Part shown: positions 35,201-41,200 of the stretch, piece after piece | Layout: the number at the start of each line of letters is the position of its first letter | Position numbering within the stretch: position 1 is the first letter of the stretch | From: Coffea arabica | Taxonomy: Eukaryota > Streptophyta > Magnoliopsida > Gentianales > Rubiaceae | Assembly (NCBI RefSeq): GCF_036785885.1 | Contig: NC_092312.1 | Location: 19,362,001 to 19,426,000, forward strand | Direction: 5' to 3' | Length of the DNA: 64,000 nt | Translations under genes and position numbers: made by a program | Notes under the pieces: generated by a model | What the model was told of the DNA's origin: nothing | What the model saw: the letters and a program-made list of their open reading frames with translations, nothing else | Database searches by the model: none

Positions 35201-38200
35201 CTTTTTAATAATCCCCTGCTTAGCTACTTTCACACGAGATCATTGATGAGATTTTATGGACAAAGGCAACAGCACCAAATCCAAACTAGTGCTAAATCAT
35301 GGCCATGTAAAAACTATTGAAGAGTTCCCATGTTAACAACAATATTAGCAAATAGGGAATTTAAAATATTAAAGCCAATAGAAGCTTAATGATGTCACTC
35401 AACATCTTACAACATACTAAGGTATGTGACAGAAAGATAGAAAGGAAAGTTTTTACTTGCAAACTTCACCTATCAAATTCATCTATGCAACAAAGACCGC
35501 CATCTGCTAATACAAGGGCACCAGCTTCAAGCATCCACTCCCCTGAAAATTTAGTCAATGTGCTTAATGCAGAAAAGGGGCCACAAAGCAGATCTTGGAA
35601 ATTTTACAAGGAAGAGGCAAAATAGAGTTTGAGAGACATGACATGATAATACTGCTCAGATTTCAGGTTGTTTAATAAAAATGCAGAATATTAAAAGAAT
35701 GTACCTCCATCCTTGACTGCAGTAACAGTCAATCCAGCACTTGTGCTTCCCAACCCGGTAGTAATTACAGATCTGTTGCTCAACTTTGCAGCAAACTTTA
35801 AGAACTGAGATTTTCCAGTGCCTGATGGTTCAAATTGAGGGACGTATCTAATCAGTTATAGCAATTTTAGAACTCAAAAAGGAAATTATGCATCAAAATA
35901 TTCTCTATTATAGCATAAAAGTAGACACAATAATCACTTTAGATAAAACCATTGTCTTATACTACTACAAAACCAGGGTCCACTGTTAGGATGCAAATGT
36001 ATGGAGTCAATCCAAAGCGACCTCAATAATATAGTAAAACAAGCTGACCATTTGTTGAAGTAGGTCTTGCTCTTAAAGAAGAAACTACAAAGTAAAAGTG
36101 TCAGCGAGGAATGGTTTCCAAGTAATTACCAGGATCTCCCACAAGAAGCAAATGAGACTCTCCACGGACTTTCGTCCCAGAAGCATCAACATGTTGGACA
36201 CCTCCAATTAGTGTCAGAGCCACTGCATTCAAAATATAAATCAAATCGTCTATAACTATAAATACACCATTTACTCAAGAAGGTATGCACTCTCCTGCTG
36301 TATCATTTACAGTGAGATCTCTTATTCTGTGGTTTGAGTTTCAAGACTCTATCTGGTAGAAAGTACCTGCAAGCTTTACAGTGAAGAGCCCGAAAACTTG
36401 TGGGCAGATACCACGTAGAATGGCATTCCTACCTGGGAAAATTTACAAGTTCAGAGACAGTTAAGGAAAAGTTTACATACTGTATGTAGACCAAATGACA
36501 GGTACATATCATTACCTTTTAATGGGGCATTTTCAAAATCTAACCAGAACTGCTTGAACTTCATAATGACATCATCTGGGATATCTATCCCTGACTTGAC
36601 TTCATTCATTCTCCTGTAAAGAAAAGTAGTCGGTTAAGAAAAGATAGAGAGAAAGTATAAACTCATGTTCATTGAAAATGGGGTTGCTTTAAGTTGGAAA
36701 ACCACAGAATCCTCCAATAGATAATATGTAACTGGTCAAGATTTTTAGCAAGGTACCTTGACAACTATATCGAACAATACCACCAATTTACTAACTATTT
36801 AGAATGCTCACTTACACTACTTAACAGTGGAAGTCTAAAAGTAAAAGAGTATTAATAGTCAAATACTAATGCACATGTAACAGCCAGAACCTTGATCGTT
36901 TGAATTCGAGGATGCCACTGTATTATCTCTGAAAAAATCTTGAGCTTCATGGGATTCAACATGCTACTCGTAATTCAACTTGTTCTCCTTAAACTCCTGT
37001 ATTTAGCACTTTCTAAAATTATAACCTCCTGCGATTTCTTTTACTAAAGATAGTTGACAAAAATTTCATTGCCTAAAATAACCAAACATACATGCATCTT
37101 TCACCAAACAAAGCCCATATAGAGAGTCAATTCTAGCATTTGACGTTAATGACATAATAGTTACGTGTAGAGCTGTTAATCGAGCCGAGTTGAGCTCGAG
37201 CACATGATAATTGAGCTCGACTCAAACCTCTAATCGAGCTAGCTTGAGCTCGCTCGATTAGTCGTTCGAGCTTCAAAAGCCGTTCGAGATCGACTTGTCA
37301 TACTCGGTCGAAAACTCGAACTTGAGCTCAATCTCGAGTTCAAAATCAAGCCGAGCTTATCAAGCTCGAAACTCGAGCTCGAACTTGAGTTCAAAATCGA
37401 GTCGTCTGTCTTAAAAGTTGCAATTGCGTAGAGATACCAAGAAGAAGAAGAAGCGGTACAAACAACCCAATCCACGCTTGACGCAGCATTTCATTTCAAC
37501 GACGTCAGAGAGCAAACGCTGACAAAAATAGACTTTTTTTTTTAACGGTAGTTATATAGTATATAGTAGTAAAAAAAAAAAAACCCTTCCTTCATCATCA
37601 TCTCCTCAATCCTCCTGGGGAAAATCAGAGAGCAGTGGAAGGAGAAGGGGGGAAGTCTGTCTATATCATCATCGCTGAATATCGGATGCAAACACTTGCG
37701 CTCAAACCAAAAATATTTCTCTCAATTCTCCTGACCAACTTCCCACATCCCACATCCAACCAAAGGGGAATTAGGGATTTTATTTGGAGGGTTGGAATGG
37801 GAGCAGCAGACAGGCTGGAAGAAATGGGCATGGGCAACCATAACTCCTTCCATAATGATAATACTTCTACTTGCAGCAGCATCAGCACCCTAATTTTCAC
37901 TTACGGAACTCTCAAGCACGGTTTCTCCAATCACACCCTCTTACAAGACATGATGGCCTCCGGAGATGCCGCCTTCCTGGGCATCTGCCGGACTACCAAC
38001 CAACTCCCTCTCGTCTGCAGGCCCTACAGAGCTCCCTTCCTGCTTAATTTTCACGGCCGTGGCCACCTTGTCTCCGGCGAGCTCTACTCCGTCTCCCCAA
38101 GGGCATTGGCCCGCATGGACGACTTGGAGGGCGTCACTCACGGTCCCTAAATGGTGGCGCTGCTCACAGATTCACGAGAAGTAGCGGTGCGTCCCTAAAC

Positions 38201-41200
38201 GGTGCTCACAGACTTGGATTGAATGATGGCAGTGAGAATGCCGCTGTGGAACAGGAAAAGGAAAGAGGAAAGAAAAAAATAGGGCTAGAAACGGGAGAAT
38301 GAATTAGGTAAAAGTATCATATACACAATGAAATGACGCTAATGCCCCTACTATTTGAGCTTGTCGAGCTTTAATGAGTCGAGCATGACTCGGCTCGTCT
38401 ATTAAACGAGTATATATAGAACTTGAGCTCAGCTCGTTTTTCTCAATAAACGAGCCGAATCGAGCCCTTATCGAGCCGAGTCGAGCTCGGCTCGCGAGCT
38501 ACCCGATTCGATTAACAGCTCTAGTTACATGTCACTTAGTATCTTAAACTTTTGAACAGTTGTCAATTTGTTCCATTAATGTCTGAAACATAACTGGTTG
38601 ACTAGGTTACCCTAGAAAGTGAAGAAATATAGCATTTACAGCAGAAAGTGATTAAACTAGTAGTTCCAATAAAGTTTGATTAGATAGAAACAGATGATTC
38701 TCTAATCATGACAAAAATATGAAAAGCTATCTAAAAGTTGAATTAAACGAGGAACAGAACCACAAGTACCTTACGTAGTTTGCAACTAAGACAGGATCAA
38801 GGTCACAGCGGACATCCTTTACATCAGGTGACCATTTTGCCGTCAATACCCCAGTGACAATCACATCATCTGAAATCAAACTTACGCAGATCAGTTACAT
38901 AACCACAACACAAAAGTGCACTTAATGTACATATGACAGCATAACCAGAAATAAAAAGATGTCAAATTTCCATATTCCCGTGACATATTTCTCTAGTATT
39001 AAAACTGCATAGTCATCATATACTTGTAAGGAAAAAGTTCTAAGTGAAGATCAAAACATTTATGTTACTGATTTCTCTGCACCAGAAGCACCACACGGAT
39101 GTTTTAATGGAATAACCAAACCAACAAAATCATGCATTGTTGTAATGATTCTCAGTTCTGTGTATGAGTTAAAAGCTGCCGAGATGGGTTTCGTTCCAAT
39201 TGCTTCTGAACATATGCTTCATTCATAAAATTGATATTTCCCATGGTAGTAAAGATTAATGCATCTCTTCTCTTTTGGCCTGAGTTCTCTTCAACCTGTT
39301 CTATTTTTTCCTTCTTGAGTTCTACCAATTTTGTAAAACTGCCAAGCTTATAACTGTTAGTGGGGGTTCTTGAATATCTTACAGGCTGGATCTTCATGTC
39401 CCGTCCTGTGGACACACTCAAGATGTTTCCTTTTCTTTGATTCTTCAGTGTCCTATCAATTTAGGCCTTCATGTCTCATTCGCACTCTAGATGTTTCATT
39501 TTCTTTAATTTCATATAAGAACTGATTGCTGAACTGTTTCATTTCAAACTGCTGGTAACAGTAAGGTTCCTCAATTGGATTTTAACCCCTTCAACACCTT
39601 CTCCTGGCTATTTATGTTCTACCTCCTCTTATAAGCCTTGTGGTCAACCAAATACTCAGTTGGAGAAGACAATCAGCATTACCCCATGGAAAGAAGCTTC
39701 TAATTTGTCCCAAACCTCGTCATCTTGAGCTCTTAAATTTCGACAGCCAAAAATTTTGCTCATAGTCTTCGAGTATACGGCTTCAATCCTGAACAGATTA
39801 GTTAAGCATACAATTTAATCTACTTCAACTGGGATAACAGAATTACGCTGAGGCCAAGATGGTCAGACTCCCTAGCTGCTCTTAGCATCAACTGGAGTAT
39901 AGCCTATGACACTTAAATTAAATGCTACAAAATTCTAATCCTCTTTATTCTTGCTTTCTGAATGTCAATCACTAAAAGTAATGACAGCCTCAAATAGCTT
40001 TGTTTGGTTAGACAAAAGATTAATATGGATAAACAAGGAAATAAGATAAATAAAACAAAGTCGCCAAAGTTAAAAGGGAAAAAAGCTTTCTTAAGAGAAT
40101 TGAACCAAAATATTTTGCTAATGGTGTGAACTCAATAAGGGCAATAACTTTCAGCAAGATATAAGAAAACAGTTACATGGGGCCAAGAAATGAAAGTTGG
40201 ACTACAAAAATAAATAAATAATTAAAACTTCATAGACAAGCACTTTGAAATGCACTACCTCCAGCTTTCACCGTGTCAACTAGATCATCCTTCAAAATGA
40301 CTGGAATTGAACGAGGAATAGCCCCAACACCTAACACTTGAGCGTTCTCTTGGATTTTAATCTCTTGGTAATCGTGACATATCTTGTTGTCTTCTATAAG
40401 ATTAAACCTTGTGCTTTCACAAAACTTAGAGCTCTGTTATAGGAATGATAGGAATGATGGGCTTAGTCTTTGCCAAAATAAATGCAGGAAAAGTGTAAAA
40501 GATTAACAGACTTAAATTTCTGACATAAATACTCAGTTTTGAAAAGTATGAACAATGAAGTCCAATATTCTATGAACTGTAATATAGGTTAACCCAATAA
40601 ACGAACAGAAAACTGAAAAGAGCAAGGGAATAGTAGCTACTTGAACAAGGCACTTAAAAAAGATGTGAATTGAATGACTAAAGAACAAACCTGAGAGGGA
40701 CAGATGGTCGGCTTGGGAATTACATTTCTAGTTTCCACCTCAGGATAAACTTTGAACCTGCACATGGAACTTATTAGGTAACCACTGAAACATTGACTCA
40801 GAAATATAAGCGCTTTCTACTAATATCAAGAATACAGAACAAGAAAATATATTCTTCACCTTTAGAAAAACAGGTCAATCAGCTAGTATTTAGGCTTTCA
40901 AATTTTCAAAGTAGTTCTTCTAAAATGCTTCGGCAAATGACAATCTTGAAGCAAAATTACAAGCTCATAGATATCCAGTCAACTTAACCATAATTTAAAG
41001 TTTCTGTATGCTTTTCTGGTAAGGCGCATACAGGATTGCAGAGAGATGTCTTAATGTGAGCGAATTTATCAACTCCTTCTATGTAGTATAAAGATAACAT
41101 CCAATAATTGCACCTTAAACTTTATGGAAGAAACAATTTAAGAGCTAAAGCAAATCGAGACCGACCTGTGTTTACAATTGCGACACTCATAAATCTTTTC

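What the first reader, a model, noticed from the sequence alone, without database searches (positions are those of the whole stretch)
37159..38532. Pack-MULE carrying a gamma-glutamylcyclotransferase gene half, nested in an MCM9 intron
Seen directly: 15-base identical inverted ends, related GAGCTCG-rich arms, a 10-bp target duplication with one mismatch, and an undamaged 117-codon frame matching the N-terminal half of a GGCT/AIG2-like protein with apparent leader DNA. Captured host-gene fragments in Mutator-like elements are well known in rice; clear eudicot cases with an open, antisense-to-host frame are fewer. It could yield a truncated protein or antisense RNA against either MCM9 or the parent GGCT gene.
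Basis: partly seen in the sequence, partly recalled or inferred. Interest (0 to 1): 0.78.

Follow-up and report, generated by a model that had tools for sequence, protein, structure and literature searches.

The report
Coffee jumping gene carrying gene fragment
A small, dependent jumping gene of the hAT class sits in an intron of the coffee MCM9 gene and carries the first half of an ordinary coffee enzyme gene; this is a known kind of event, here seen with its donor gene, its relatives and an empty landing site in the same genome.

Summary
The letters described are there, and the main idea, a DNA transposon carrying a captured host-gene piece in an MCM9 intron, is right. The superfamily is wrong: the element (37168-38523, 1356 bp) is a non-autonomous hAT element (Pack-hAT), not a Pack-MULE. 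Of 18 family copies with both ends read, 14 have an 8-bp target duplication (7-8 of 8 bases), and only 5 of the 14 match on both outer bases too. The arms are clusters of short subterminal repeats. Longer relatives with the same ends encode hAT transposase domains. The cargo (about 37404-38145) is the leader and first 116 codons of a gamma-glutamylcyclotransferase gene whose donors lie near the starts of contigs C3 and C4 of this genome, very probably allotetraploid Coffea arabica. The homeologous MCM9 intron on C4 is a clean empty site. The cargo keeps leader DNA that each donor has lost separately, so capture looks older than the subgenome split and insertion younger. The frame shows no sign of selection: its changes fit neutrality, and a glycine present in 120 of 120 homologues is arginine. 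It is a well-resolved new member of a known kind.

The parts
37168..38523 (+). whole non-autonomous hAT element (Pack-hAT), 1356 bp
   Evidence: 16-bp perfect TIR and 8-bp TSD register
37160..37167 (.). target site duplication, left copy GTTACGTG
   Evidence: single copy GTTACCTG at the homeologous empty site on C4
38524..38531 (.). target site duplication, right copy GTTACATG
37168..37183 (+). left terminal inverted repeat TAGAGCTGTTAATCGA
38508..38523 (-). right terminal inverted repeat
37168..37403 (+). left subterminal arm rich in CGAGC/GCTCG, shared with relatives elsewhere in the genome
   Evidence: motif counts; arms about 75-90% identical in relatives
37404..38145 (+). captured host DNA: leader plus first 116 codons of a gamma-glutamylcyclotransferase gene; left border within 37400-37404, right border within 38142-38154
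   Evidence: match to donor genes on C3 and C4, query 242-991; border sequences
37797..38150 (+). 117-codon open frame; the last codon and the stop lie at or beyond the right border
38146..38523 (+). transposon body and right arm; family sequence recognisable from 38155 on
   Evidence: matches to L055, L065, L067, L068 and L048
36614..38769 (-). MCM9 intron that holds the element (2156 bp; 792 bp without the element and one TSD copy)
   Evidence: exon reading frames on either side; MCM9 identity
38770..38869 (-). MCM9 exon upstream of the intron
   Evidence: translation; splice sites read directly
36516..36613 (-). MCM9 exon downstream of the intron
   Evidence: translation; splice sites read directly

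Best explanation
It is a Pack-hAT: a non-autonomous hAT transposon of a dispersed coffee family whose middle was replaced or interrupted by about 740 bp of DNA from a GGCT gene, and which was moved, presumably by a transposase encoded by longer family members, into an MCM9 intron on the C3 chromosome. Shown: ends, 8-bp TSD of the family, hAT transposase domains in relatives with the same ends, donor genes, borders (the right one inside the donor's coding sequence), empty homeologous site. Inferred: capture by template switching during repair of a break inside a family member; capture before the two subgenomes diverged; movement in trans; no function now beyond lengthening the intron from 0.79 to 2.16 kb.
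For: TSD: 14 of 18 family copies with both ends read have 7-8 of 8 matching flank bases, and 9 of those 14 do not extend on both sides to 10; three long relatives give 8/8, 7/8 and 7/8. hAT domains inside elements with these ends: PF05699 E 4.8e-19 in L055, PF05699 E 2.4e-24 in L092 and PF14372 E 5.1e-26 in L098. Beyond the TIR the arms align better in direct orientation (score 34, 0 of 300 shuffles reach it) than inverted (24, reached by 17 of 300). Dart-related hAT elements of rice have a TIR printed as gcccatttggccacctcta, that is TAGAGGTGGCCAAATGGGC on the other strand, and 8-bp TSDs (PMC2956540, passages). Donors at C3:170947 and C4:184881 with uninterrupted coding sequences. Five bases, AGCCG, are shared by donor and relatives at the left border. 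Empty site with a single GTTACCTG on C4.
Against: The 8-bp and 10-bp readings both fit this one locus; by my reckoning the bases alone lean to 10 (chance match of two flank bases 1 in 16, against 1 in 4 for the extra paired TIR base), so the decision rests on relatives. Four of the 18 copies lack a TSD at 7 of 8 or better. A weak inverted likeness of the arms remains: 57% gapped identity over 100 bp against a shuffle mean of 50% and maximum of 58%. The cargo was found only in this element and the two donors, among 40 scored of 501 candidates, so movement of the captured form is inferred, not seen. The timing of capture rests partly on indels in a leader that aligns poorly; 37683-37703 and four shorter stretches are absent from both donors.
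Confidence: 0.95

Rival explanations
1. It is a Pack-MULE (Mutator superfamily) with a 10-bp target duplication and degenerate long TIRs.
For: At this locus the direct repeat is 9 of 10; 5 of the 14 family copies with a TSD also match on both outer bases.
Against: 9 of those 14 do not; hAT domains in relatives; no long inverted repeat. If the element is made to start at GAG, the Mutator end given in PMC4423477, the symmetric flanks match at 1 of 9, 1 of 10 and 1 of 11 (10 of 12 at twelve).
Confidence: 0.02
2. The open frame is a functional truncated GGCT protein kept by selection.
For: The frame is open over 117 codons; glutamate 111 aligns with residue 82 of the AIG2-like chain 3jub, the catalytic residue of GGACT as I recall.
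Against: Codon changes specific to the element are 9 nonsynonymous to 4 synonymous, as expected for neutral change (0.74 nonsynonymous; P(X<=9)=0.46). G75, present in 120 of 120 homologues, is R. The last third of the Pfam domain (positions 76-120) is missing.
Confidence: 0.03
3. The insert yields antisense or small RNA that regulates MCM9 or the donor GGCT gene.
For: The cargo is antisense to MCM9 and includes leader DNA, possibly with promoter parts.
Against: No expression data were at hand; the coding part is about 4% diverged from the donors.
Confidence: 0.06
4. The insertion is older than the subgenome split and was lost cleanly from C4.
For: The cargo itself looks older than the split.
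Against: The C4 site has one copy of the 8-bp target and no footprint; in a rice comparison even the 8 perfect excisions of 94 left both TSD copies (PMC4423477, passages; all superfamilies together).
Confidence: 0.05

Closest known systems
Ds-l4 and Ds2 elements of maize with gene fragments (Ac/Ds, hAT; PMC3260210)
   Same: Short hAT TIRs, 8-bp TSD, modal length of Ds-l4 about 1 kb, variable filler, gene fragments in 2 Ds2 and 9 Ds-l4 elements; Ac has repeats within 200 bp of each end (passages and section 19)
   Different: Different ends and host; here donor genes, both borders and an empty homeologous site were found
Pack-hAT elements of maize (PMC8903248) and Hatvine-6 of grapevine (PMC2528002)
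   Same: hAT TIR, 8-nt TSD and captured host sequence; Hatvine-6 shows it in a eudicot (passages)
   Different: Hatvine-6 elements carry transposase coding sequence; this element does not
Dart/nDart of rice (hAT; PMC2956540)
   Same: TIR starts TAGAG.TG, 8-bp TSD, non-autonomous partners of a coding element (passages)
   Different: TIR differs after base 8; no gene capture mentioned in the passages seen
Pack-MULEs of rice and other plants
   Same: Captured gene fragment between inverted ends
   Different: The majority of MULEs have long TIRs, with 9-11 bp TSD as the search criterion (PMC3310237, passages); neither holds here

Membership tests
hAT superfamily | 8-bp target site duplication | tested here: met
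   14 of 18 copies at 7-8 of 8, 9 of those not extending on both sides to 10; long copies 8/8, 7/8, 7/8
hAT superfamily | short TIR with a hAT-like start | tested here: met
   16 bp, TAGAG, as in Dart-related elements. PMC4423477 Table 1 gives CA for rice hAT, here TA; the wider rule of A at 2 and G at 5 is recalled
hAT superfamily | short subterminal repeats near both ends | tested here: met
   12 and 11 motifs in the two arms, 1 between; at most 4 in any 243-bp stretch outside the element, sampled every 10 bases
hAT superfamily | hAT transposase in elements with the same ends | tested here: met
   PF05699 in L055 and L092, PF14372 in L098; the element itself has none
hAT superfamily | movement by a hAT transposase | not testable with these tools
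   needs a transposition assay
Pack-TYPE transposon | host-gene fragment between TIRs, donor gene elsewhere, no transposase | tested here: met
   donors L044 and L045
Pack-TYPE transposon | captured sequence multiplied by transposition (not part of the definition in the passage of PMC8903248 that I saw) | tested here: not met
   one copy besides the donors among the scored candidates
Mutator-like element / Pack-MULE | 9-11 bp TSD | tested here: not met
   family TSD is 8 bp
Mutator-like element / Pack-MULE | long TIR (usual, not universal) | tested here: not met
   57% gapped identity over 100 bp, shuffles 50% mean and 58% maximum

The most novel reading that the evidence does not exclude
The captured GGCT leader still acts as a promoter inside the MCM9 intron and drives an antisense transcript across the upstream MCM9 exon, giving a C3-specific damping of MCM9 that the C4 homeologue lacks.
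Probability: 0.05. Interest if true: 0.5.

Novelty: new member of a known kind. Interest (0 to 1): 0.3.

Why it matters
As I recall, gene capture by hAT elements has fewer dissected cases than capture by MULEs. This one comes with donor genes, both borders, coding relatives, insertions shared and not shared between subgenomes, and an empty site, so capture and insertion can be ordered in time. It also shows how an 8-bp duplication can be misread as 10 when one locus is judged alone.

Tried and rejected
Pack-MULE: rejected on the TSDs of relatives, arm structure and transposase domains. Functional truncated enzyme: unsupported. Prokaryote and viral collections searched for the ends gave 38 and 4 matches to 16 and 17 bases, which I take as chance by my own reckoning and did not use. 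Rfam on the window: no match at gathering scores. A paper search for end sequences as text: the 10 listed of 123 were unrelated. 'Pack-hAT' gave 2 papers; of 43 papers with three of four coffee, subgenome, hAT and gene-capture terms the 6 listed had no 'gene capture'. I saw no report of this element in these searches. The origin of the extra piece in L051 could not be sought.

Full report
What is there. The element has 16-bp perfect inverted ends at 37168-37183 and 38508-38523 inside an intron (36614-38769, minus strand) of a gene two of whose ORFs match MCM9 best among solved structures. Its plus-strand frame 37797-38150 matches positions 1-75 of 120 of Pfam GGACT.

Which genome. The window is G000:C3:19362001-19426000 in an unnamed assembly of 1.198 Gb and 131 contigs. 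The C4 copy of the GGCT gene encodes a protein 99.6% identical to that of Coffea eugenioides, and the PPR protein at 58595-60649 is nearly identical to a C. eugenioides isoform apart from a skipped stretch. C3 and C4, C17 and C18, and C21 and C22 behave as homeologous pairs at the places compared. C. arabica is an allotetraploid of C. canephora and C. eugenioides (PMC3045888) and a published assembly has 22 chromosomes and 1.13 Gb (PMC12307819); of both I saw the start of the abstract in the listing. I infer Coffea arabica, with C4 from the eugenioides side and C3 from the canephora side.

Superfamily. A search with the element gave 77 match rows in the genome, from 501 first-look candidates of which 40 were scored. 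Thirty loci (L043-L072) were read: two are donor genes, seven gave no pair of ends under the limits of the script, and 21 gave 24 rows. I dropped six rows: two spurious rows of L053, second rows of L058 and L060, L071 (same place as L051) and L072 (left end poor). Of the remaining 18 copies, this one included, 14 have 7 or 8 matching bases in an 8-bp duplication; four do not (L046, L052, L062, L066). Of the 14, five match on both outer bases as well (L043, L047, L050, L056, L063) and nine do not (L048, L049, L051, L055, L058, L059, L060, L061, L069). An 8-bp duplication is thus the rule, and the 10-base repeat at this locus is an 8-bp duplication in an A-N8-T target. Counting homeologous pairs once, 4 of 12 insertions sit in such targets, more than expected (P 0.005 to 0.025), perhaps a target preference.

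Arms. Past the TIR the inverted alignment of the arms scores 24, reached by 17 of 300 shuffles, and the direct one 34, reached by none; over 100 bp the inverted gapped identity is 57%, near the top of the shuffles (mean 50%, maximum 58%). So a trace of inverted likeness remains, but no long TIR. The arms are clusters of CGAGC and GCTCG, 24 of the 69 in the window lying in the element. Repeats near both ends are described for Ac (PMC3260210 passages).

Transposase. A 1649-bp relative with an 8/8 TSD (L055) carries a hAT dimerisation domain, PF05699, E 4.8e-19. Of seven stretches fetched around further matches, three showed both ends with a TSD: L095, 8479 bp (8/8); L092, 4751 bp or 4842 bp because its right end is doubled (7/8); L098, 5008 bp (7/8). 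Of four ORFs scanned from these, L092 gave PF05699 (2.4e-24), L098 gave PF14372 (5.1e-26), and the two of L095 gave nothing above a cut-off, although L095 holds a stretch 81% like the L055 domain.

Cargo. Query 242-991 (37400-38149) matches C3:170947-171643 at 83%, and parts match C4:184881-185409 at 92-93%. Both donors have an uninterrupted coding sequence, 222 and 227 codons. At the left border the donor and the relatives L048 and L051 share AGCCG (the element reads AGTCG, 37400-37404). At the right border donor and element agree to 38145 (GGTC), and family sequence is recognisable from 38155; between them GTCCCTAA resembles both the donor (GTCACTA) and a motif of the family (GTCCCTAAACGG). 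Repair by template switching fits this but is not shown.

Order of events. The homeologous intron on C4 reads straight through with one GTTACCTG and no trace of the element. The cargo keeps 21 bases of leader (37479-37499) missing from the C3 donor, and blocks such as 37547-37603 and 37609-37661 missing from the C4 donor; five stretches of 5-21 bases are absent from both. It also shares N16, F18 and I29 with an unnamed relative, P0215, and not with the two donors. Substitutions unique to the element number 22, against 8 and 4 for the donors, unpolarised. I read this as capture before the two subgenomes parted and insertion at MCM9 after it. Ancestral polymorphism, a donor from another lineage or faster change of transposon DNA could mimic part of this.

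Function. Thirteen codons differ in the element from both donors, 9 nonsynonymous and 4 synonymous, against 74% nonsynonymous expected without selection. Three of the nine are shared with P0215 and may be ancestral, which leaves 6 to 4. Glycine 75, found in 120 of 120 homologues, is arginine. I see no sign that the protein is kept. Expression could not be tested.

Known or new. Gene fragments in hAT elements are documented in maize (PMC3260210, passages and one section; PMC8903248, passages), grapevine (PMC2528002, passages) and animals (PMC8277862, passages). This is a new, well-resolved member of that kind.

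Noticed in passing
window 38642-39074 and 39623-39697; L075-L078, L099-L103: A piece of MCM9 itself (an exon with intron flanks) recurs on eight further contigs (C1, C2, C8, C11, C14, C16, C17, C19). In the five copies read it lies in a repeat whose main blocks are 94.8-99.6% alike (one 187-bp block of L103 only 78%). Left ends read TAAGGGTGCGTTTGGTT or nearly so in 5 of 5, mirrored right ends in 4 of 5 (L100 deviates). It looks like a PIF/Harbinger-type element (TAA/TTA duplication; label recalled) that captured and recently spread MCM9 DNA.
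   Followed up: partly
L048 (C18) and L051 (C17): Homeologous copies of one hAT insertion with the same TSD GTTTTGAT; L051 has about 533 bp more (L051:1936-2469), so either L051 gained filler in place or L048 lost it.
   Followed up: partly
family copies L043, L047/L063, L050, L056: 4 of 12 independent insertions sit in A-N8-T targets, a possible target preference.
   Followed up: partly
window 26543-26685: Tandem duplication of a 71-bp unit, 2.0 copies, 100% matches.
   Followed up: no
P0215 (unnamed, 218 aa): A GGCT homologue identical to the element over its first 62 residues but like the donors in residues 63-116; either a relative with the ancestral form or a chimeric assembly.
   Followed up: partly
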